DNA of 64,000 nt, taken from assembly GCA_949291515.1 (NCBI GenBank), contig CASEVY010000010.1, forward strand, positions 248,001 through 312,000, written 5' to 3'. Origin of the DNA: an uncultured bacterium (GTDB lineage: Bacteria > Elusimicrobiota > Elusimicrobia > Elusimicrobiales > Elusimicrobiaceae). The notes under the pieces are model-generated. The model was not told where the DNA came from. It searched no databases and saw only the letters and a list, made by a program, of their open reading frames with translations. Below, piece after piece: positions 29,600-48,206 of the stretch (positions within the stretch are counted from its first letter, which is position 1; every line of letters begins with the position of its first letter). The translations under genes and the position numbers were made by a program.

Positions 29600-32500
29600 A
29601 TGAAAAGGCCGTTTATTTTTTTGTTATTGGGATTTGTTTTATTCGCCGCCAATGTGTACGGGGCGGGTTTAAACGTAATATCAAAACGTCCCATGGGGCA
29701 ACTTAACGAACAGCTTACCGATGGGGTAATATCGGTAACTTTTGACCGCCCCGCCGCTTCTTTAAGCGGGGATAATCTGCAGGAGGGCACTAATTGCCCC
29801 CTAAAAATCAGTCCGTCCGTCGAGGGTTCCTGCCGATGGGTAGGCACTCAGACTTTGACTTTTACCCCGTCCAAACCGCTGGCCACCGCTACGAAATACA
29901 CCGTAACGCTGCCTGCCGGTTTTAAGAGCGGGGTGGACGGAAGCAAACTTTCCAAGGCGTACAGCTGGTCGTTCGAAACGGCCCGTCCGGCGGTGCGCGC
30001 GAGTCGTCCTTACGACGGCGAGAGATGGCTTTCATTGCGGCCCAAGATAATCGTAGTGTTTAATATGGAACTGGATTTAAGACGCATTTATTCCTATGCA
30101 AAACTTATGCAGGGCAATATATCCGTCCCGTTAAAGATAAGCGAAATAGACGACGAACTTTTCAATAAGGAATTTGAGTATTCGGGTTTTAACAAAGAAA
30201 GCGTATACGTTTTTGAACCTTCCGTAAATCTTGAGGAAGGCAAAGAATATAATTTGATTTTAAAGAAAGGCCTTTTGGCCAAAGTCGGCACCTTGGGAAT
30301 GTCGGCCGACAAGACCATAAGATTTTATACTTACGGGCCTTTGGCTTTGTCGTCCGAACCGCAGGCGCAATGTCTGCCTTTTTCGCCCTCTTTGGATTTT
30401 ACCAATCCAGTAACGGCCGGGGAAATAGCGAAGAACATAACTTTCGATCCGCCTTTAAGCTACAGCCCTTGCGATCCTAACAGCAGCGGCTGGTCGAGAA
30501 CGGTCCAAAACGAAAACGGCGCCAATACTCAGGTTTACAGGGTGGAGCTTTGCGGGCTGGAATTTAAGGCGGGGCAAAGCTATAAGGTAACTTTAGGCAA
30601 AAATTTGCGGGACATATTCGGCAATACTTTGGGCAAGGACGTAACTTTCACCTGGTCCAACGACGGCTATTGCCCTAAAATAGATTTTAAAGGCGGCTTT
30701 GGCGTATTGGAAAGCTATCTGCCCGTACGCTATCCTATAAAGGCGATAAACGCCGGCGGGATAGAAGTGGAAAAGCAAAATATTCCCTATGAGGATTTTA
30801 TCGAATTCTATAAGGACGAAGCGCCCTGGTGCCGCAAGAAGGAGCTTAAGGGCGACTTCCTGTCCAATATAATCACGCCGAATTTGGAAAAGAATCTTTC
30901 CGTAAGCACGTTTATTAATTTGGAGCCCGCATTGAACGGGAAGAAATACGGTTTTGTCTTCACACAGGTATTAAACAGGCATTACTACTCCGAGGAATGC
31001 TGGCAAAGCGCTTTTGACAATGTTACTGACATCGGCGTAAACCTCAAGAGTTCGCCCGCGAATATATTGATATGGGCGGCGGACCTAAAGGAGGGCAAAG
31101 AGTTAAAAAACGCGGAAGTGGAAATCCGCGATTTAAGCAACAAGGTGTTGTGGAGCGGCGTTACGGATAAGCGCGGTATAGCGATAGCGCCCGGCTGGAC
31201 GGAACTCAAGCCGGTCAACGAGGATTCCTGGCGCACGCCAAGACTGTGGGTTTTTGTAAAGAAAGGCGATGACGTCGCGGTGGTTTCCAACGAGTTTAAT
31301 GAGGGGATACAGCCTTGGCGTTTCAATTTGAATTATGATTGGAATCCTCCGCAGAGCCCGCTCAAGGCTTTTGTGTTTACCGACAGAGGCATATACCGCC
31401 AAGGGGAGAAGGTCTACATAAAAGCGATACTTCGCTCTCTTAAGGACGGTGTATTTGATTATGCTGGGATAAAACAAGTCCGCCTTAGAATAAGCGACGC
31501 CAGAGGCAAGGAAGTTCTTAACAAGCAGGTTTCTTTGAACGAGAAGGATTCCGCTTTGTATTACGAATATGAATTGCCGGCCTCTTCGCCCAGCGGATAT
31601 TGGAACGTAAATTTGGAAAGCGGGGACTGGACGGAAGGAGCGTCGTTCAGGGTCGAAGCAGTAAAGCCCGCTGAGTTTGAAGTCAATTTGACGCCGCTGT
31701 CCAAGCGTTATTATTCCGGCGAAAGGGCCGTATTTTCAATAGGGGCGAGGTATATGTTCGGCGGCGCATTGGGCGGCGCGCCGGTGGATTTGTCATTCAA
31801 TCTTATACCCGCGGCCTATATACCTAAAGGTTGGGAGAACTATACTTTTTATCAAGAGATTACACAAAAGGGAAAGGACTTGCTTTCCTCCAAGATAGAA
31901 CTTGACGAGAAAGGTTCCAAAACTTTTGATTTCACTATGCCTTCCATCGATTACTCCGCGTTTCTTTACGTGCAGGCGGGTGTAATGAGTCCGCAAAATC
32001 AGCAGCTGTTTGCGCGCAAAGGAGTAAGCGTATTGCCGGCGGATATCTTCATCGGGGTAAAGAGCGAAGAGAATATGACGGAAGCGGGCAAGCCTTTCAC
32101 CGCCGACATAGTGGCGGTAAACTCCGAAGGCGAGCTGCGCGCCGGTGCGCTTTTGCAGGGTAATTTGAGAAGACGGGAATATGTCAGCGTGCGCAAGACC
32201 GGAGTTGCGGGCCGCCTGGAATGGATAAGCGAGGAAAAATCGGAAGACATATCTTCCTTTGTCTTGAACGCTTCGGACGGCAAAGCGCAGTGGACTTTTA
32301 CGCCCGAAAAAGCCGGCAGTTATATCCTTACCTTGAAAGGACAAGACGAGCAGGGCCGCGTAAACTATACCGATTTTTACTTCTACGTAACCGAGGGCGA
32401 CGCCTATTGGAAGCAAACCGACGACGATTTGCTTTCGGTGTCTTTCGATAAGGAGGAATATCAAATAGGCTCCAAGGCGAAACTTCTTATCAAATCGCCT

Positions 32501-35146
32501 TACAAGAAGGCCAAAGCCCTTATAACGGTAGAACGGGAAGGGGTGCTGGAGCATTATGTAAAGACGATAAAGGGCGGCGCGGCGAAGGTGAGCATACCGG
32601 TTAGGGAAAATTACGCGCCCAACGCATTTGTCAGCGTGGTGCTGGTGCAGGGCCGGGCGGAAGAACAGAAATACTCCAAAGACGGCGAGGATTTATCCAA
32701 GCCGCAGGCCAAATTCGGCTATGCCGTTTTAAACGTGCCTCCGAAGGAATTTGAACTCAAGACCTATATCACGCCGGAACGCTCGGAATATCGCCCCGGC
32801 CAAACGGTTAATTTGACCGTCAGAACGGAAAATTACAAAGGCAAAGGCACGCCTGCTTCCGTAACGGTGTTTGCTGTAGACGAGGCTATGCTAGCCCTAA
32901 GCGGGTACGATACGCCCGATCCGTTCGATTACTTCTATTCCAAACGGCCTTTGGCGGTGGAAACTTCCGACAACAGGCTGTTTATAATCGGGCAGAGGAG
33001 TTTTGGACAGAAAGGCGAAAACAGAGGCGGCGGCGGTTCGGACAGTAAACTGGGCGGCGTGGATTTGAGGAGCAATTTCGTCTTTACGCCTTTGTTTGCG
33101 GCTTCTTTGCAGACCAATGAGGCGGGCAACGGCGAAGTAAGTTTCAAGGCGCCGGACAATTTAACCAAGTTCAGGCTTATGGCCGTATCTGCGACTAAAG
33201 AGCAATTCGGCAAAGCGCAAAGCTCGATAGAGGTGTCAAAACCTTTGATGATAAAGCCTTTCCTGCCGCGTTTTGCAAGGCAGGGCGATAAATTCGACTG
33301 CGGCTTTATAGTATATAATTATACGGATAAAGACGCTTTAAAGGTGGAAACGGAAATGAAAGTTTCCGGCGCGGTCAGTTTGCTGGCCGACGCGCCAAAA
33401 ACCGTTGAAATCAGCGCGGGCGGCAGCGTTAAGGTGCAAGGGCAGTGTCTTGCGGGCGCGGGCGAAAAGGCCGTATTCGGGTTTAAGGCGGCTTCCTCCA
33501 AGGACAGCGACGGGCTTGAAGTTTCGCTGCCGGTAAAACAGATCTCACGTATGGAAAGCGCTTATACTTCCGATATGACGCAGAGCGAGCAAACCCAGAA
33601 GCTGCAGCTGCCTTCAAATACGCTGGTAGATTCGCAGAATTTTGTAAGAGCCGTATTCTCCTCAAGCGTACTGTTGAACGCGCAGGGTGCTGCCAGATAT
33701 CTTAAAGATTATCCTTACGACTGCCTTGAACAGCGTCTGTCTAAATTGCTTTTGTATACTTCCGGCAAAGATATTTTGACCTTGTTCAAAATATCGTCCG
33801 CCGAAGAGATAAACCAAAAAGTTACGGATATTATGGACGCTTTGGTTTCTTATCAGACGGCTTCGGGCGGATTCTCTTATTGGCCTTATGCTGTCGCGGC
33901 GGATCCTTTTGTTACGGCTTACGCGGTGGACGTGTTGGTTTCGGCCAAAGACAACGGCTTTAAGGTTGATGATGATTTGATCAACAAGGCTGCGGCGTGG
34001 CTTAATCAATATTTGTCGGGCAGCCAAAAAGCTGGATATGCTTACGGCGCCATAGAGAGCGGTACGCTGCGCGCGTATGCCGTATACGCTTTGGCTTTAA
34101 GCGGCGCGAATGCGGGCGGGCACTTCAGCAATTTATACGCCCAGAATCAGGGCCTTGGCTTGGAAGCCAAAATATATCTGTTTAAAGCGGCGTATATATT
34201 AAAGCAGGAAAGCGCCTATAAAGCGCTTTACGCCGATATTATGAACTTCGGCAGAGTATCGGAAAGGGGCATATACTTCCAGGCGCCGACCTCTTATTCT
34301 TGGCTCTATACTTCAGACGTAAGGGCGACTGCTTTGGCTTTGGAGGCTTTACTATCGACAAACGCGCCTTTCCCGCAGGCTTACAAGGCGGTTTCTTATC
34401 TCAATTCCTCTTTGGATAAGGACGGCAGTTTCGGCAATACTTTAAACAATGCCGCCGCGATAAGGGCCTATAATGCCTATTACCGCAAGAACGAAAGTCA
34501 GGACCCCGATTTTAAAGCCTTCTTGAAACGGGACGGGAAAAATATTTTCGACGTTTCGTTTAAGGGCCGCAAGCAGGAATCGGGCGTATTCGAGAAGAGT
34601 TTTAAAGAATTCTTCAAAGAAAATCGGGAACTGTCTTTAAACGTCGGCAAAGAAGGGGAGGGCAATCTCTATTACAGTTTGGGAATGTCTTATTATCCGC
34701 AGACGCTTAATAGCGCGGTATCGGCGGGCTTCAGGGTTTCCAAAGAGATAAAACCCTTAGGCGGCAAAAAAGACCTTAAAGCCGGCGAACGCGCGGAGAT
34801 AATCATAACCGTATCTACCGATCAGGACAGAACCTTTGTGGCTTTGCAGGATTATCTGCCAGCGGGTTTTGAAATCGTGGACGAAACTTTGGCGACGGAA
34901 GGCATTATCCCTCAGCCTAGAGGCGAAGAAGAAGAACAAAGCGCCGATCCGTTTATCAGACGCGAAATCTACGACGACAGTATTGTCGCTTTCGCAGATT
35001 TTATGCCGCAAGGCGTATACAAGTTTAAGTATACGGTTACGGCGTCGACTTCGGGTTCGTTTAAGGTGCCGCCCGCTTGGGTCAATGCTATGTATTGGCC
35101 GGAAGTATACGGCCGCACAGCCCAAAGCGAGTATACGATAAAATAG
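29600..35146 (+). CDS. Bacterial alpha-2-macroglobulin with thioester motif
   Basis: An 1848-aa periplasmic protease trap. A signal peptide (about 1-20) lacks a lipobox Cys, so it appears soluble rather than lipid-anchored as in E. coli. Residues 40-600 hold Ig-like and MG domains, residues 600-1050 further MG domains, and the thioester domain carries CLEQ with Cys1375 in DYPYDCLEQRLS. The helical TED toroid and a C-terminal receptor-type domain follow. In this family a protease cut in the bait region exposes the thioester, which traps the attacker. GGAGG precedes the ATG. The stop abuts the PBP1C start with no gap, the conserved A2M-pbpC pairing, thought to guard and repair a breached cell wall. 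Confidence 0.93.
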   Translation: MKRPFIFLLLGFVLFAANVYGAGLNVISKRPMGQLNEQLTDGVISVTFDRPAASLSGDNLQEGTNCPLKISPSVEGSCRWVGTQTLTFTPSKPLATATKYTVTLPAGFKSGVDGSKLSKAYSWSFETARPAVRASRPYDGERWLSLRPKIIVVFNMELDLRRIYSYAKLMQGNISVPLKISEIDDELFNKEFEYSGFNKESVYVFEPSVNLEEGKEYNLILKKGLLAKVGTLGMSADKTIRFYTYGPLALSSEPQAQCLPFSPSLDFTNPVTAGEIAKNITFDPPLSYSPCDPNSSGWSRTVQNENGANTQVYRVELCGLEFKAGQSYKVTLGKNLRDIFGNTLGKDVTFTWSNDGYCPKIDFKGGFGVLESYLPVRYPIKAINAGGIEVEKQNIPYEDFIEFYKDEAPWCRKKELKGDFLSNIITPNLEKNLSVSTFINLEPALNGKKYGFVFTQVLNRHYYSEECWQSAFDNVTDIGVNLKSSPANILIWAADLKEGKELKNAEVEIRDLSNKVLWSGVTDKRGIAIAPGWTELKPVNEDSWRTPRLWVFVKKGDDVAVVSNEFNEGIQPWRFNLNYDWNPPQSPLKAFVFTDRGIYRQGEKVYIKAILRSLKDGVFDYAGIKQVRLRISDARGKEVLNKQVSLNEKDSALYYEYELPASSPSGYWNVNLESGDWTEGASFRVEAVKPAEFEVNLTPLSKRYYSGERAVFSIGARYMFGGALGGAPVDLSFNLIPAAYIPKGWENYTFYQEITQKGKDLLSSKIELDEKGSKTFDFTMPSIDYSAFLYVQAGVMSPQNQQLFARKGVSVLPADIFIGVKSEENMTEAGKPFTADIVAVNSEGELRAGALLQGNLRRREYVSVRKTGVAGRLEWISEEKSEDISSFVLNASDGKAQWTFTPEKAGSYILTLKGQDEQGRVNYTDFYFYVTEGDAYWKQTDDDLLSVSFDKEEYQIGSKAKLLIKSPYKKAKALITVEREGVLEHYVKTIKGGAAKVSIPVRENYAPNAFVSVVLVQGRAEEQKYSKDGEDLSKPQAKFGYAVLNVPPKEFELKTYITPERSEYRPGQTVNLTVRTENYKGKGTPASVTVFAVDEAMLALSGYDTPDPFDYFYSKRPLAVETSDNRLFIIGQRSFGQKGENRGGGGSDSKLGGVDLRSNFVFTPLFAASLQTNEAGNGEVSFKAPDNLTKFRLMAVSATKEQFGKAQSSIEVSKPLMIKPFLPRFARQGDKFDCGFIVYNYTDKDALKVETEMKVSGAVSLLADAPKTVEISAGGSVKVQGQCLAGAGEKAVFGFKAASSKDSDGLEVSLPVKQISRMESAYTSDMTQSEQTQKLQLPSNTLVDSQNFVRAVFSSSVLLNAQGAARYLKDYPYDCLEQRLSKLLLYTSGKDILTLFKISSAEEINQKVTDIMDALVSYQTASGGFSYWPYAVAADPFVTAYAVDVLVSAKDNGFKVDDDLINKAAAWLNQYLSGSQKAGYAYGAIESGTLRAYAVYALALSGANAGGHFSNLYAQNQGLGLEAKIYLFKAAYILKQESAYKALYADIMNFGRVSERGIYFQAPTSYSWLYTSDVRATALALEALLSTNAPFPQAYKAVSYLNSSLDKDGSFGNTLNNAAAIRAYNAYYRKNESQDPDFKAFLKRDGKNIFDVSFKGRKQESGVFEKSFKEFFKENRELSLNVGKEGEGNLYYSLGMSYYPQTLNSAVSAGFRVSKEIKPLGGKKDLKAGERAEIIITVSTDQDRTFVALQDYLPAGFEIVDETLATEGIIPQPRGEEEEQSADPFIRREIYDDSIVAFADFMPQGVYKFKYTVTASTSGSFKVPPAWVNAMYWPEVYGRTAQSEYTIK

Positions 35147-37306
35147 ATGTTTTTTAAGAGAGCGGTTTTAACTCTGCTTTTATTGTCTTGCGCCGCGCCT
35201 TGCGTGTTTACGCAGGCGCGGCCGACTTTTGCGGCGGATAATTCCGTTACGGTTACGGACAGGAATTTCCTCCCGCTGAGAAATATCCTTTCAGGCAAAG
35301 ACGGCATTATGATACCCGTCAATTTGCAAGAGGTAAATCCTTGGCTTGTTCTTTCCGTATTGGCGGCTGAGGATAAACGCTTCTTTGAACACGGCGGCGT
35401 GGATCTTAAGGCTTCCGCCCGCGCCTTGTGGCAGAACATAAACGCGGGCAGAGTTGTGTCGGGCGCTTCCACCATAACCCAACAGCTGGCAAACGCCATA
35501 TCTCCTAAAGAACGCAATTTAAAGGGAAAAATCAAAGAGGCATATTCCGCGGCGATGCTTGAGCGGGAAATGAGCAAAGAAGAAATATTGCAGGCCTATT
35601 TAAATACGGTAAATTTAGGCGGCAATATATACGGCGTCGGCGCTGCCGCGCTGATATACTTCGATACGAATGCGGCCAGTTTGTCTTTATCGCAGTCGGC
35701 CTTCTTGGCGGGGCTTATAAAATCGCCAACGCGCTATAACCCGTTTAAAAATCTGCCGTCTGCCGTCAAACGCCGCGACGAAGTGTTAAAGCGTATGCTG
35801 GAAAACGGGTTTATCAACGAGGAGCTTTACGGACTTGCTCTTGAGGAAAATATCAAAATATCTAAACAGGAGAAGAAGTTTACCGCGCCGCATTACGGGC
35901 TTTTTGTCGCCGATAAAGCGCGCGGCGATTCAGCTTTCATACAAAGCACCATAGACGGTAAAATACAGGCTTATATAGAAGGTATTTTGCCTGGTTATAT
36001 AAAGGCTTTAAGCGCGAACAATGTTACAAACGCGGCCGCGGTGGTGCTTGACAATAAAACGGGCGAAGTCTTGGCTTTGGCGGGTTCGGCCGATTATTTT
36101 GACGAGAAAAATTCCGGCCAGGTAAACGGGGCCCTGTCTTTGCGCCAGCCCGGCTCGGCTTTGAAGCCATTTGTCTACGGGGCGGCTTTTGAGGAGGGAT
36201 TTTTGCCGTCGGATAAAGTGGAAGACGAAGATAAATTCTTCCAAGGTTCTTTCCGGCCGAAAAACTATGACGAAGACTATCACGGTACGCCAACAATGCG
36301 CGAAGCGCTCGCCTGCTCTTACAATATACCCGCAGTGCAAGTGGCCGGTGAAGTGGGCGCTTTTAAAGTGTTGGAAACTTTAAAGAGGGCGGGTTTTTCG
36401 GACTTGAACAAAAGCGCGGATTTTTACGGGCTTGGTATAGCTTTGGGCAACGGCGAGGTTAATTTGCTTGAGCTTGCCAACGCTTACCGCGCTTTGGCAA
36501 ATAACGGAGTATGGCGCCCGATGTCTTACGCTTTAAATCCGCCGATTAGACAGGAAGGCCGCGCGCTTAGGCTCTTTAGCGAGGAAACAGCCTTTATGAT
36601 TACCGATATTTTATCCGACAATAATGCCAGAGCTGCGGCATTCGGGCTTAATTCTCCGCTTAATTTGCCTTTTGATTTTGCCGCCAAAACGGGGACTTCC
36701 AAAGACTATAAAGACAACTGGGCCGCCGGTTACGGACGCCGTTTTACGGTGGCGGTGTGGGTAGGGAATTTTGACGCTTCGCCAATGCGGCGCATTTCCG
36801 GCATAACGGGCGCCGCGCCGATACTTAGGGATATAGCTCTGTTTTTGGAGGAGAATTATCCCTCCGGTAAAGTTAAAACCGATACCTCTTTTGATATGCC
36901 CGCCTCTTTGGCGCGCGTCGATATTTGCCCGGTGAGCGGATACCTTGTTTCCAAAGAATGCCCCAACTCGGTGAGGGAAGTTTTCCCGATAAGCAAACTG
37001 CCGAAAGAACATTGCGATCTTTCGCGGAGCGGGCATAACTCGGAAAAAATTACGGCTTTGGGTTCGCGGGAGGGGATATTGTTCCCGGCGCAAGGCGATG
37101 TGTTTATGCAAAGCCCGTCTTTGGATTTGGCGGCGCAGCAGATAAAATTCCGCTCTTCTCAAGAAGGCGTTTGGTATCTTAACGGAGAGAAGCTGCCGTG
37201 CCCGCGCGGCAAAGAATGTTTCTGGCCGATTAGAAGCGGCAAGTATAAATTGCGTTTGGATACCGATAAAAAAAGATACGAAGTCAATTTCGAAGTGCTT
37301 AAATAA
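35147..37306 (+). CDS. pbpC: Penicillin-binding protein 1C
   Basis: A 719-aa bifunctional class A PBP. An N-terminal signal-anchor (about 1-22) precedes the GT51 glycosyltransferase domain (about 55-220) with AAEDKRFFEHGGVD and GASTITQQLANAI. The transpeptidase domain (about 250-570) has SxxK in QPGSALKPF (Ser337), SxN in SYNIP and KTG in AAKTGTSKDY. A C-terminal PBP1C-type domain with paired cysteines (CPVSGYL, KECP, CPRGKEC) follows. The ATG directly follows the A2M stop codon with no intergenic base, implying translational coupling. It ends three bases from the convergent VanY-type gene, with no clear terminator between. Confidence 0.95.
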   Translation: MFFKRAVLTLLLLSCAAPCVFTQARPTFAADNSVTVTDRNFLPLRNILSGKDGIMIPVNLQEVNPWLVLSVLAAEDKRFFEHGGVDLKASARALWQNINAGRVVSGASTITQQLANAISPKERNLKGKIKEAYSAAMLEREMSKEEILQAYLNTVNLGGNIYGVGAAALIYFDTNAASLSLSQSAFLAGLIKSPTRYNPFKNLPSAVKRRDEVLKRMLENGFINEELYGLALEENIKISKQEKKFTAPHYGLFVADKARGDSAFIQSTIDGKIQAYIEGILPGYIKALSANNVTNAAAVVLDNKTGEVLALAGSADYFDEKNSGQVNGALSLRQPGSALKPFVYGAAFEEGFLPSDKVEDEDKFFQGSFRPKNYDEDYHGTPTMREALACSYNIPAVQVAGEVGAFKVLETLKRAGFSDLNKSADFYGLGIALGNGEVNLLELANAYRALANNGVWRPMSYALNPPIRQEGRALRLFSEETAFMITDILSDNNARAAAFGLNSPLNLPFDFAAKTGTSKDYKDNWAAGYGRRFTVAVWVGNFDASPMRRISGITGAAPILRDIALFLEENYPSGKVKTDTSFDMPASLARVDICPVSGYLVSKECPNSVREVFPISKLPKEHCDLSRSGHNSEKITALGSREGILFPAQGDVFMQSPSLDLAAQQIKFRSSQEGVWYLNGEKLPCPRGKECFWPIRSGKYKLRLDTDKKRYEVNFEVLK

Positions 37307-39620: not shown

Positions 39621-40265
39621 TCAAGGCTTCCTGTAGAAAGCCAAAAGCTGAGCGACCGCTTCCACCTCGGCCCGCGGCCTTCGTTCAATATTCTTGTGCC
39701 CGTCTTCAAGCGTCGCTTTCGAAGCGGAAAAATATACCTTCTTAACGCTTAGTCCTTTCTCCGTTTTTACAAGCGCGAGTTTGCCGTTGGTAATTTGCGC
39801 CGAAGGACAGAAAATTAAATATTCTCCTTTGTTCGCCCACGGGCATGCCGCCGTGTCGGCTACTTTCAAAGCAAACGGTGTTTGGCCTTTTGCCTCCAGC
39901 ATTACGGGTAAATATTCTTCCGGCTGAGAATAGTAGGAAATATTGAAAAACTCTTCCTTTATCTCGTTTAACACCCCTATCGGGCGGCTGGAAGGCATAT
40001 TGGAAAGGAGTTCATAAATTTTTTTATCGTAAGGTTCCTCGCTCTTTTCCGCTACGGAATAGGATATGGCGTCATCGGTAAAGTAGGAAACGGGCTTGTC
40101 AAACACGTGGGAGAGTTTTATCATATTGTCGCGGTCGGGTTTAAAGCGATTCTTTACCCAATGCGACACTACGCTGGAATCTTTTAACCCCAATTTTTTG
40201 GAAAGTTCCACCTTGGTCATAGCCGTCATTTTAAGCAGCTGTTCTATTTTTTGCCCCAAATTCAT
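39621..40265 (-). CDS. XRE-type HTH regulator with degenerate S24 peptidase-like domain
   Basis: A 214-aa DNA-binding repressor-type protein. Residues 1-65 form an XRE helix-turn-helix (MTKVELSKKLGLKDSSVVSHW). Residues about 115-214 look like the LexA/CI S24 fold (FALKVADTAACPWANKGEYLIF, then GLSVKKVY). Where active S24 proteins have GDSM, this has ADTA: the catalytic Ser is Thr, although the Lys of VKK is retained, so self-cleavage is doubtful. The ATG at 40265 follows AAAAGGAG. It is divergent from the structured-RNA/102-aa unit and faces two palindromes that are its likely operators. Release of repression may need a ligand or partner rather than RecA (inference). Confidence 0.88.
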   Translation of the reverse strand: MNLGQKIEQLLKMTAMTKVELSKKLGLKDSSVVSHWVKNRFKPDRDNMIKLSHVFDKPVSYFTDDAISYSVAEKSEEPYDKKIYELLSNMPSSRPIGVLNEIKEEFFNISYYSQPEEYLPVMLEAKGQTPFALKVADTAACPWANKGEYLIFCPSAQITNGKLALVKTEKGLSVKKVYFSASKATLEDGHKNIERRPRAEVEAVAQLLAFYRKP

Positions 40266-40335
40266 TTTTTGACTCCTTTTATAAAATTGTAGCAAATATT
40301 TTAAAAAAGTCAACGCCTATTTACCGTCTGAAAAA

Positions 40336-40364
40336 TTGACAAAGTTAAAAATATTTGATACGAT
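40336..40364 (+). promoter_or_regulatory. Strong promoter of the structured RNA/102-aa unit
   Basis: TTGACA (40336-40341), 17-bp spacer, TACGAT (40359-40364) with an extended -10 TGA just before. The -10 box lies within operator 1, so a bound repressor would block RNA polymerase. Predicted start is about 40371, giving a leader of about 170 nt. Confidence 0.8.
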
Positions 40365-40371
40365 TGTATCA
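40356..40371. promoter_or_regulatory. Operator palindrome 1
   Basis: A perfect inverted repeat TGATAC-GATT-GTATCA. It covers the -10 box and predicted start of the rightward promoter and lies in the divergent region opposite the HTH gene. Same half-site core (TGATAC) as operator 2. Confidence 0.75.
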
Positions 40372-40373
40372 GA

Positions 40374-40399
40374 TTTGATACGGTAAAAACCGCATCAAA
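40374..40399. promoter_or_regulatory. Operator palindrome 2
   Basis: TTTGATACGGT-AAAA-ACCGCATCAAA, 11-bp arms with one mismatch, two bases from operator 1. Two adjacent sites suggest cooperative repressor binding and possible autoregulation of the HTH gene. Confidence 0.72.
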
Positions 40400-40404
40400 C
40401 TACA

Positions 40405-40528
40405 AAGCCATAGGCTTGCGCCCGCGGATAAAAGCAGCGGGGTTTTCTGACCCCGAGGCGAGACGGCTCTCCCACAAATCCCAAAAAAGGATTGCCGCAA
40501 AAAAAGCGGCACTCCGCGGGCGTTTTTT
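40405..40528 (+). ncRNA. Multibranched structured leader RNA with terminator-like end
   Basis: A 5-bp hairpin AAGCC-ATA-GGCTT (40405-40417) is followed by a perfect 10-bp closing stem: CGCCCGCGGA (40419-40428) pairs with TCCGCGGGCG (40513-40522), then six T residues. Inside are four hairpins in a row: CGGGG/CCCCG (40438-40455), GAGA/TCTC (40460-40471), AATCC/GGATT (40477-40493) and the perfect GCCGC-A7-GCGGC (40494-40510). A ribosome site GGCGGAGG follows at once, then the 102-aa gene. It could be an independent small RNA ending at the T-tract, with readthrough to the gene, or a riboswitch/attenuator. It matches no RNA family I know. Confidence 0.7.
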
Positions 40529-40542
40529 AAGGCGGAGGTTGT

Positions 40543-40851
40543 ATGAAAGACATTCTGGACATTGGACGCGATGAGGCTAACCTTTCCGGCAGCGGAGCGG
40601 GGCTGTATAAAGTGATGTTGGAGCTTTTGCAGCGTTGGGAAACTTTGGCCCCTATGGCAAAGGAGTTCGCCGTTTTGGATAAAGCCCTCAAAAAATATTT
40701 CTACGGAGTTCCGGATTTCCGTATAGGCAAATATCAGGTAAAAGGCTTTTACTGTGATAGCTCAAAACTGAGAATACCGGAAAAAGTAAAAAATAAATAT
40801 CTAAGAAAGGAACGGGAATGGATCGTAAGCATAAATAAGATAAACAAATAA
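40543..40851 (+). CDS. 102-aa protein of unknown family, controlled by the structured leader
   Basis: A small soluble protein with no signal peptide or membrane helix. The N-terminal half is acidic and helical (about 1-55, with GAGLYKVMLELLQRWETLAP). A central aromatic segment (YFYGVPDFRIGKYQVKGFY) is followed by a basic C-terminus (IPEKVKNKYLRKEREW, then KINK) that could bind nucleic acid. GGCGGAGG lies four bases before the ATG. I recognise no family. It sits between two structured RNAs under one promoter repressed, presumably, by the divergent HTH protein, a layout like RNA-linked toxin-antitoxin or phage-derived regulatory units, but no such function is shown. Confidence 0.75.
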   Translation: MKDILDIGRDEANLSGSGAGLYKVMLELLQRWETLAPMAKEFAVLDKALKKYFYGVPDFRIGKYQVKGFYCDSSKLRIPEKVKNKYLRKEREWIVSINKINK

Positions 40852-40874
40852 GCGTAGAGACAGTAAAAATTTTG

Positions 40875-40951
40875 GCCGGTGCGCTTCCGCCACTCCTCAC
40901 ACAACCGCATAGAATATACTCCTAAAACTTCATAATATCCTCCTCACCGGC
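40875..40951 (+). ncRNA. Stem-enclosed 3' RNA with three CUCCU motifs
   Basis: GCCGGTG (40875-40881) pairs with CACCGGC (40945-40951), enclosing 63 bases that look mostly unpaired and contain CTCCT at 40893-40897, CTCCT at 40919-40923 and CCTCCT at 40939-40944. These match the anti-Shine-Dalgarno core and could pair with AGGAG ribosome sites. It follows the 102-aa stop by about 20 bases and is directly followed by a strong terminator. It could be a 3'-UTR-derived small RNA; the shape suits exposed seed regions. Inference only. Confidence 0.55.
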
Positions 40952-40977
40952 AGGCCGCTTTTTAAGCGGCCTTTTTT
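40952..40977 (+). terminator. Rho-independent terminator of the structured-RNA unit
   Basis: AGGCCGCTT, loop TTT, AAGCGGCCT and a T-run. A 9-bp stem with perfect pairing, immediately after the CUCCU-bearing RNA. The next 200 bases have no gene. Confidence 0.94.
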
Positions 40978-41179: not shown

Positions 41180-41953
41180 ATGAAAAAAAAGAAATTTACT
41201 CAATATCTAATAATTGCTATTTTGTTTTTCTTGCCTTTTTCGTTTGCAAGTTTAGCTTTTTCCTCCTGTTCTTACGGCGGCAAAACTTTAAGCGACGGAA
41301 ACGCAATATATTCGCCCGACGGCTGTGATACCTGCGTTAAATATTGCTGCCCCAACGGAGAAATGAGCGACGAAGATTGCGCCGAAGGATCCGATATAGC
41401 CTCTTATTCGGAAGCCTGCGCGGATAAAATGAGCAAATGCAAAAGCGGCTATACCGAAGGCAGCGACGGAAGTTGTTGCTTGAATACTAGCAAGCCGAGA
41501 AAAACTACGGCTTATCTTAACTATTCCTCTTATGGATGGTATACGACAAGCGGCAAAATAAATCATTTCGCTACTTTAAAAGTTTCCGCCCCGTATTGTA
41601 AAAATTCATCTTGGTATGTTAAGGTAAACAGCTATTCTTGCACTTCGCCGTTAAGCAAAACTTCAGACGGCTGCAAAATGTGGCCTTACTGGACTTGCCA
41701 ACGTCATAACGTCGCTACGGAACACGATGGCTTGCCAATGTGTTCCGGTACGGCCTCTTCGGTAGGGGCTTTACTTGATTCATACACAAGTGCTTCTGCC
41801 GTATACGGAGCGGGAAGCACGGGGGATTGTTCTTACGAATGTCTGTACAGAGATTCAAAAAGACTGTACCAGCTTTGTGAATGTGATATGTCTTTGGAAG
41901 ATTTTGAAACAGACGTTAAATCCGAATACAGAGCAAGCGAACTTAAGTTTTAA
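41180..41953 (+). CDS. Secreted cysteine-rich protein of unknown function
   Basis: A 257-aa protein with a long signal peptide (about 1-28) and some twenty cysteines in the mature part, including SSCSYGG, DGCDTCVKYCCPNG, GSCCLN, WTCQRH, DCSYECLYR and LCECD. Such density implies disulphides, so an extracytoplasmic place. No family recognised. GAGGAG precedes the ATG. It is followed by a terminator and stands alone, behind a promoter whose spacer contains a 12-T tract. Similar Cys-rich secreted architecture is seen in the gene at 46962-48206, so the two may belong to one lineage-specific group, perhaps pseudopilin-exported or surface-exposed. Confidence 0.75.
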   Translation: MKKKKFTQYLIIAILFFLPFSFASLAFSSCSYGGKTLSDGNAIYSPDGCDTCVKYCCPNGEMSDEDCAEGSDIASYSEACADKMSKCKSGYTEGSDGSCCLNTSKPRKTTAYLNYSSYGWYTTSGKINHFATLKVSAPYCKNSSWYVKVNSYSCTSPLSKTSDGCKMWPYWTCQRHNVATEHDGLPMCSGTASSVGALLDSYTSASAVYGAGSTGDCSYECLYRDSKRLYQLCECDMSLEDFETDVKSEYRASELKF

Positions 41954-46915: not shown

Positions 46916-46961
46916 ATCTAAAAGGGAAATAATACGTATATTATTTTAAGAGGGATTGAAT

Positions 46962-48206
46962 ATGAAGAAATTTCTTCTTATATCGCTGTGTGTTTTCTTG
47001 TGCGCGGGCGCGAAAGCTGCGGAGTATGAAATAACTACCGCATTGTCCAGCCCGTATGGAATGTTCAGTACATTTTCGGTGTTTGGGGACGCTACCGTAT
47101 GGGATTTGATTATTGGGGCCAACAGCAAGGATAACGTAACGCCTACCGGGCACACTTTGCCCATATACCGCCCAATACAGGAAACGTATTTGAATGCAAA
47201 CGACATAGTATTCGGCGGGGACTTGAATATAAACAGAGACTTGTTTTTAAGTGCGCCGAACCAGTCATACGGGAATGTTCTGGTAACCACTTACAGCAGC
47301 GATACCGTTCAGGTGCCGACGTTTTTTGATATGAATTTTTCCAATATAACGATACCTACTCTATATGCCAATATGCTTCTTACCGGCCCGCTTACGATAA
47401 CGGGAGCGCTGCAGGTAATTACGCTTAGGACCGCGATGCTTAAAATAACCAATTCTTCTACTGGCAGATCTTTCACTTTCCCGTCGGTAAGAGGAACGTC
47501 TTTTGGGGATAGGGTTTTTGCTTCCACGCCGTCCTCCCATTGCGGGAGCGACAATAAAGGGCATTATTACGGGCCTTGGGTTACTTGTTCCAGCGGGTCA
47601 TGCCCGTCAGTGAGCAACAACTGCGATAATGACGATGCCGCGCAATATACGTGCCCGGATAACTTAACGGCCAGCAAGAACTGTATTGATATGAGGCGTG
47701 TAACTTACGGGATAACTTCCGTCGATACCAGGCCATATATTTCGGACGTGAAATCTTTTTATCGCAAGTGCGTATACGCCACCGACGAAGAAAGCGGCGC
47801 GCCTAACTGCGTTTTGGAGGACTATGTCGCCGGTGAAGAGGCCTACGATTCCATAGTTGATTGTTCCGAGAGCGATTTGACAAGCTGTATATCTTTGTGT
47901 TCGCGGCAGGGCGGCTGCTCCGGGACGGCGCGTTCGTGTAAGTATAAGGAAGATCCTCCGACGCAATTCGGCTCGGATTGCGCTTTGAGCGGATGGGAGA
48001 TGGGTTCCGGATTGGAATGTAAAGACTCATATTCCAGGGTAATGTATACGGTATATACGTGTCCGGCGGGTTCGGATTATACTTCAAGGCCGGCGAGTTC
48101 CACTTTCTCGCAGTATAGGGAGGTGGCTTGTATGGGCGACAATGTGGAGAACGATAATACCTCCGACACATATTGCGACAAGGAATTTTTGGTTATAGAT
48201 TTTTAA
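46962..48206 (+). CDS. Secreted cysteine-rich protein of unknown function
   Basis: A 414-aa protein with a signal peptide (about 1-18, ending GAKAAEY). The first half (about 20-180) is Thr/Ser/Asn-rich, beta-like and almost free of Cys, with repeated short strands (NINRDLFLS, GPLTITGALQVITL) that resemble a beta-helix or tail-fibre-like region. The second half (about 180-414) has roughly twenty cysteines. GAGGGATTGA precedes the ATG at 46962. It has its own promoter and terminator. Such proteins are plausible surface or secreted products in this lineage, but I can name no family or role. Confidence 0.75.
   Translation: MKKFLLISLCVFLCAGAKAAEYEITTALSSPYGMFSTFSVFGDATVWDLIIGANSKDNVTPTGHTLPIYRPIQETYLNANDIVFGGDLNINRDLFLSAPNQSYGNVLVTTYSSDTVQVPTFFDMNFSNITIPTLYANMLLTGPLTITGALQVITLRTAMLKITNSSTGRSFTFPSVRGTSFGDRVFASTPSSHCGSDNKGHYYGPWVTCSSGSCPSVSNNCDNDDAAQYTCPDNLTASKNCIDMRRVTYGITSVDTRPYISDVKSFYRKCVYATDEESGAPNCVLEDYVAGEEAYDSIVDCSESDLTSCISLCSRQGGCSGTARSCKYKEDPPTQFGSDCALSGWEMGSGLECKDSYSRVMYTVYTCPAGSDYTSRPASSTFSQYREVACMGDNVENDNTSDTYCDKEFLVIDF

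What the first reader, a model, noticed from the sequence alone, without database searches (positions are those of the whole stretch)
40265..40977. Unrecognised regulatory locus: degenerate-S24 repressor, two operators, multibranched RNA, 102-aa protein, anti-SD RNA
Seen: a divergent HTH gene, a near-consensus promoter whose -10 lies inside a perfect palindrome, a 110-nt RNA with a 10-bp closing stem and four inner hairpins ending in T6, a ribosome site and small ORF straight after it, then a second stem-enclosed RNA and a strong terminator. Known layouts that look similar are type III toxin-antitoxin loci (RNA, terminator, toxin) and phage-like repressor units, but neither the RNA (no tandem repeats) nor the protein matches them. 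Inference: a compact RNA-protein element with repressor control, perhaps mobile or defence-related.
Basis: partly seen in the sequence, partly recalled or inferred. Interest (0 to 1): 0.75.

Follow-up and report, generated by a model that had tools for sequence, protein, structure and literature searches.

The report
Phage-derived switch with a new RNA
A small genetic switch, apparently left behind by a virus and kept by a family of bacteria, makes an intricately folded RNA of an uncatalogued kind together with a small protein related to one part of a viral DNA-cutting enzyme.

Summary
A CI-like repressor with a degenerate S24 domain diverges from a strong promoter whose -10 lies in overlapping palindromes. 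The promoter leads into a folded RNA and a 102-aa ORF. The unit occurs in 16 genomes (this one included) of one family of Elusimicrobiota, and RNA and protein always occur together. The RNA has a closing stem, four inner hairpins and a 12-nt stretch (AGACGGCUCUCC) invariant in all 16. Compensatory change is strong (19 of 33 pairs, against 11.4 in shuffles) and no Rfam family matches. The 102-aa protein is not YutD but a stand-alone relative of the C-terminal domain of phage Cas4-like exonucleases. In one relative (G019) the same repressor type, an operator and a structured leader precede phage early genes, so the unit derives from a prophage switch. Covariation, low dN/dS and divergence in step with ackA show a maintained resident, not debris. 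In the window's lineage a G-poor, stem-enclosed RNA with anti-Shine-Dalgarno motifs stands where other lineages have a second small protein. Function is inferred: most likely a repressor-held unit in phage conflict with the RNA as main conserved product. A put-like cis-acting leader is the main rival.

The parts
39621..40265 (-). CI-like repressor, 214 aa: HTH_3 plus degenerate S24 domain (nucleophile Ser lost, Lys region kept)
40286..40313 (-). likely promoter of the repressor gene (TTGACT-16-TACAAT)
   Evidence: sequence inspection
40336..40364 (+). sigma70-type promoter TTGACA-17-TACGAT, kept in relatives with small changes in the -10
40357..40381 (.). two overlapping operator palindromes, GATAC-N4-GTATC and GTATCA-N4-TGATAC; exact site unique in the genome (next best has 2 mismatches; number at 3 mismatches near control)
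40374..40399 (+). 5' hairpin P0 of the transcript; its 5' arm is the operator half-site, its 3' arm changes in relatives to keep pairing
   Evidence: folds
40405..40417 (+). small hairpin directly before the RNA core (AAGCC-AUA-GGCUU); GGUCUUUUAGACC or GGCCAAAAGGCC in relatives
40418..40523 (+). RNA core: P1 40418-40428/40513-40523, P2 40434-40459, P3 40460-40471 (GAGA-CGGC-UCUC), P4 40477-40493, P5 40494-40510 (GCCGC-A7-GCGGC)
40460..40473 (+). core GAGACGGCUCUCCC; AGACGGCUCUCC is identical in all 16 copies, including the divergent one of G020
40543..40851 (+). 102-aa protein, relative of the C-terminal domain of phage Cas4-like exonucleases
40875..40951 (+). second RNA: GCCGGUG/CACCGGC stem closing a G-poor loop with CUCCU, AACUUCAU and CCUCC motifs; stands where other lineages have a second ORF
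40953..40977 (+). intrinsic terminator GGCCGCTTTTTAAGCGGCC-T6

Best explanation
Shown here: this is a maintained chromosomal remnant of a phage lysogeny switch. It holds a repressor gene, one promoter-operator that is the only evident operator in the genome, a new conserved folded RNA, and a small protein related to one domain of a phage recombination exonuclease. A second small protein (other lineages) or an anti-SD RNA (this lineage) follows. Inferred: the repressor keeps the promoter off. It has lost the S24 serine, so it is unlikely to respond to DNA damage by self-cleavage and more likely yields to an antirepressor, a ligand or an incoming phage's regulator. Once the promoter opens, the RNA is the main conserved product and acts through its invariant P3 hairpin on a conserved partner, while the fast-evolving exonuclease-domain protein binds or poisons the matching part of a phage recombination machine. 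Overall role: conflict with related phages. That role is about 0.35 likely and each molecular step less; the stated confidence is for the origin and anatomy together with 'the RNA itself is functional'.
For: RNA: 15 model hits at E<1e-12, all in genomes that also hold the protein, none elsewhere in 150 relatives or about 295 genomes of the phylum. The 16th protein genome (G020) has a divergent RNA with the core kept. Covariation: 19 of 33 pairs with two-sided changes, 0/500 shuffles, and 17 of 34 on an alignment not fitted to the structure. Protein: the profile hits the C-terminus of a 327-aa Cas4-like nuclease in another family (E 1.3e-6) and of its homologue in an IMG/VR phage contig (42 bits). 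Phage early-operon version in G019: repressor with full PF00717 match, operator, leader with z -5.8, second-ORF homologue, Cas4-domain exonuclease and replication initiation protein. Repressor matches phage repressors. Selection: dN/dS about 0.04-0.22 for the small protein and 0.04-0.14 for the repressor. Identity falls in step with ackA.
Against: No expression data. No phage carrying the RNA was found. The G019 leader is not detected by the RNA model, so its kinship rests on position, architecture and a resemblance (CAGACAGCUCCCAG). The AlphaFold model of the protein is unusable (pLDDT 44). No defence family matches the small proteins. No conserved target of the invariant stretch was found. 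Low dN/dS fits any constrained function, not phage conflict in particular.
Confidence: 0.6

Rival explanations
1. The RNA is a cis-acting leader that acts on RNA polymerase, as HK022 putRNA does: made at the very start of the early operon, it suppresses pausing and termination downstream.
For: Position just downstream of a repressor-controlled early promoter both in the resident unit and in the phage-like G019 operon. putL is about 70 nt, has two stem-loops and lies just downstream of PL (PMC9378689). An invariant core suits a conserved target such as RNA polymerase.
Against: The resident operon is only 0.3-0.7 kb, so there is little to antiterminate. Fold and length differ from put (five helices, 100-126 nt for the core). 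No sequence link to put was tested or shown.
Confidence: 0.25
2. Prophage-type trans RNA made by partial termination: a short RNA ends at the T6 run (40528) and readthrough gives the mRNA, as for IsrK of Gifsy-1 or (from memory) the CI RNA of satellite phage P4.
For: In the window the closing stem followed by T6 looks like a terminator. IsrK exists as a terminated short RNA and a readthrough mRNA (PMC4825925).
Against: The T-run is not conserved; several relatives have AATTATT, CCCC or AAGTTAAA there. No conserved complementary target was found within the loci, and complementary sites in the genome are at control level.
Confidence: 0.15
3. Type III toxin-antitoxin locus: an RNA antitoxin followed by a toxin gene.
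For: An RNA precedes a small ORF.
Against: The folds show a single branched unit without tandem repeats. The protein matches no toxin family and is a relative of a phage exonuclease domain. A dedicated divergent repressor is not part of type III loci (general knowledge).
Confidence: 0.05
4. A riboswitch or metabolite-controlled leader for the downstream gene.
For: Multibranched fold with an invariant core at the 5' end of an mRNA.
Against: No Rfam match; always paired with one phage-derived gene and a dedicated repressor; found nowhere else in the phylum. The distance from stem P1 to the ribosome site varies from under 10 to about 45 nt.
Confidence: 0.05
5. Neutral prophage debris, or a chance arrangement.
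For: Phage origin, and absence from some congeners such as G014.
Against: Compensatory changes, dN/dS far below 1, intact ORFs and operators in 16 genomes.
Confidence: 0.02

Closest known systems
Phage CI/Cro-type lysogeny switches (S24 repressor diverging from the early operon)
   Same: HTH plus S24-like repressor, divergent operator-promoter; early genes with Cas4-type exonuclease and replication initiator in the G019 version
   Different: S24 serine lost in the resident copies; no integrase, structural or replication genes beside it; kept as a stand-alone unit; a new conserved RNA in the leader
HK022 putRNA
   Same: Structured RNA directly downstream of an early phage promoter
   Different: Larger, five-helix multibranched fold; no RNA polymerase link tested
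IsrK of Gifsy-1 and other prophage leader sRNAs
   Same: Prophage-derived RNA in the leader of a small-protein operon
   Different: No conserved terminator after the RNA; no antirepressor or antiterminator gene recognised
Type III toxin-antitoxin loci
   Same: RNA before a small ORF
   Different: No repeats, no toxin homology, dedicated repressor present
PF06265 YutD-like
   Same: 17-bit match to the 102-aa protein, below its cut-off
   Different: Only 2 of 15 family members match; the better-supported relationship is to phage exonuclease C-termini

Membership tests
Phage-type S24 repressor (CI-like) | N-terminal HTH domain | tested here: met
   HTH_3 25.8 bits against a cut-off of 23; phrog_4 E 9e-14
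Phage-type S24 repressor (CI-like) | S24 domain with catalytic Ser/Lys | tested here: not met
   PF00717 below cut-off in the window copy; Ser position reads ADTAACP. The G019 homologue has a full PF00717 match (75 bits) but reads GSCM
Phage-type S24 repressor (CI-like) | Binds the palindromic operator in its own intergenic region | not testable with these tools
   Operator conserved beside the repressor in all 16 loci and exact site unique in the genome; binding not shown
Type III toxin-antitoxin | Tandem-repeat RNA antitoxin | tested here: not met
   Single branched fold, no repeats in the aligned copies
Type III toxin-antitoxin | ToxN-like endoribonuclease | tested here: not met
   No credible Pfam, NCBIfam or PADLOC match
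Phage Cas4-like exonuclease | Homology to the C-terminal region | tested here: met
   E 1.3e-6; 41.9 bits to the phage contig protein
Phage Cas4-like exonuclease | Catalytic PD-(D/E)XK domain | tested here: not met
   The 102-aa protein covers only the C-terminal part
Known Rfam family | Score at or above gathering threshold | tested here: not met
HK022 put-type antiterminator RNA | Binds RNA polymerase and suppresses termination | not testable with these tools
   Only position and presence of structure are alike

The most novel reading that the evidence does not exclude
The RNA is a new class of phage-born regulatory RNA that cells have domesticated. Under a dedicated non-cleavable repressor it acts in trans, with the exonuclease-domain protein as partner, to block related phages: an RNA-protein defence unit unlike known types.
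Probability: 0.2. Interest if true: 0.85.

Novelty: new variant of a known kind. Interest (0 to 1): 0.55.

Why it matters
It adds a covariation-supported RNA family with no Rfam counterpart. It also shows a phage lysogeny switch stripped to repressor, leader RNA and one or two small proteins, yet kept under selection across genera. The RNA core is more conserved than the protein it precedes, so what such an early phage leader RNA does becomes testable in a unit of about 1.4 kb.

Tried and rejected
YutD homology: rejected, 2 of 15 members and below cut-off. Viral scan with the 14-mer GAGACGGCTCTCCC: 73 hits, none a convincing RNA by the model (best E 0.06). Viral scans with the repressor alignment and with the second ORF: no relatives; phage tblastn with both small proteins: none. 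Antisense target of the invariant stretch: 38 genome sites with up to 2 mismatches against 42 for the control, no consistent gene in the loci. Coding potential of the RNA: rejected because core length varies by non-multiples of three (100 to 126 nt) while stems are kept. Regulon beyond this locus: none clearly above control. T6 attenuator: not conserved. Targets of the second RNA: GGAG-N(3-9)-ATGAAGTT occurs at only two other sites in the genome; the 102-aa ORF's own start region ranks second of 52 window start regions by duplex energy, suggestive only. Weak RNA model hits outside the family (best E 0.019) lack the core motif. AlphaFold of the 102-aa protein on four sequences was too poor for a fold search; the deeper homologues come from tools not listed in that service's rule, so they were not sent.

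Full report
What is there. The repressor gene 39621-40265 (-) and the + strand transcript, whose start is inferred near 40371, share a 277-nt region up to the 102-aa ORF. The promoter is TTGACA-17-TACGAT and its -10 lies in GATAC-N4-GTATC; a second palindrome, GTATCA-N4-TGATAC, overlaps it at 40366-40381. The exact operator occurs once in the 1.5-Mb genome; sites with three mismatches are near control numbers, so this locus is probably the repressor's only target. The RNA core 40418-40523 folds with z = -5.6. The second RNA is less striking by energy (z = -1.5), but its layout is kept in seven relatives.

Distribution. The 102-aa protein is found in 16 genomes (this one and 15 others) among 60, all in the same family. 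A covariance model of the RNA finds the same genomes except G020, whose divergent RNA keeps AGACGGCUCUCCC. Nothing else scores below E 0.01 in 150 relatives or about 295 genomes of the phylum. RNA and protein are therefore a unit. Flanking genes, judged by eye from the translations, show about five chromosomal places: next to ackA; between a sugar epimerase and ksgA; and near thrS-, uvrA- and thiH-like genes. G014 (99% complete) lacks the unit and has ackA next to an aminotransferase-like gene. Repressor and protein identities fall in step with ackA identity, only faster, so descent is mainly vertical, with relocations and losses. Two named relatives are Elusimicrobiales MAGs. G018 has the size that I recall for Elusimicrobium minutum; that is memory, not a test.

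The RNA is real. On an alignment fitted to the model, 19 of 33 pairs show two-sided changes (shuffled mean 11.4, 0 of 500 as high), and 93.5% of cells pair (slid controls at most 49%). On a plain MAFFT alignment 17 of 34 do (shuffled 9.4, 0 of 500). P1, P2 and P4 vary and compensate. P3 (GAGA-CGGC-UCUC) never varies in the 14 model sequences, and P5 (GCCGC...GCGGC) hardly varies; these two helices therefore carry no covariation evidence of their own. A 5' hairpin re-uses the operator half-site as its 5' arm, with the 3' arm changing to match. No Rfam family matches at gathering threshold, and hits up to E 5 are far below their thresholds. Length changes are not multiples of three, so the RNA is not coding.

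The protein. Pfam's only match, YutD, fails on most members. The family profile finds the C-terminus of a Cas4-like nuclease beside a replication-type gene in another family of the phylum (L192) and of its 48%-identical homologue in an IMG/VR contig (L193, 41.9 bits). The 102-aa protein is thus a stand-alone relative of that domain. dN/dS is 0.04-0.22.

Phage origin. In G019 an outlying repressor with a full S24 match diverges from an operator-promoter, a highly structured leader (z = -5.8) containing CAGACAGCTCCCAG, a homologue of the second ORF, a Cas4-domain exonuclease (phrog_1990) and a replication initiation protein (phrog_9474). This is the layout of a phage early operon, although the rest of that contig looks chromosomal, so it is probably a prophage remnant. 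The window unit keeps the switch, the leader and a recombination-derived small gene. In eight loci (L026, L028, L030, L031, L033-L036) a second ORF (MDYLTARWF...) follows; in the window's lineage and in L027, L029 and L032 a stem-enclosed anti-SD loop with a terminator takes its place.

Mechanism. Shown: architecture, conservation, covariation, selection, phage kinship. Inferred: repression, induction route, and the role of the RNA. The invariance of the 12-nt core beside a fast-changing protein suggests that the RNA meets a conserved partner. A cis-acting put-like role (PMC9378689) and a terminated trans RNA of IsrK type (PMC4825925) are the main rivals; the second is weakened because the T-run is not conserved. 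Literature searches found no report of such an RNA from this group; subscription journals are largely missing from that library.

Verdict.

Noticed in passing
L089:2367-3041, L090:2114-2935, L092:2385-3107: Other S24-type repressors in these genomes read GNCM or GDCM where LexA/CI has GDSM, i.e. Cys in place of the catalytic Ser.
   Followed up: no
L088:4400-7100: Prophage-like early region in G019: repressor, operator, structured leader, second-ORF homologue, Cas4-type exonuclease, replication initiator; a second operator-like TTGTATCAAATTTGAG lies just before the second-ORF homologue.
   Followed up: partly
L026, L028, L030, L031, L033-L036, downstream of the 102-aa homologue: A second small protein (MDYLTARWF..., about 110-160 aa) with no credible match in Pfam, PHROGs, NCBIfam or PADLOC; the second RNA stands in its place in the window lineage.
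   Followed up: partly
window 41180-41953 and 46956-48206: Two Cys-rich proteins with signal-like N-termini and no Pfam match at E 1.
   Followed up: no
window 29600-37306: A very large secreted protein resembling bacterial alpha-2-macroglobulin next to a penicillin-binding protein of the PbpC type (judged by eye).
   Followed up: no
L194 and L195 (G000 C4:66159, C7:129247): The only other sites in the genome matching GGAG-N(3-9)-ATGAAGTT, the complement of the second RNA's loop; possible targets.
   Followed up: no
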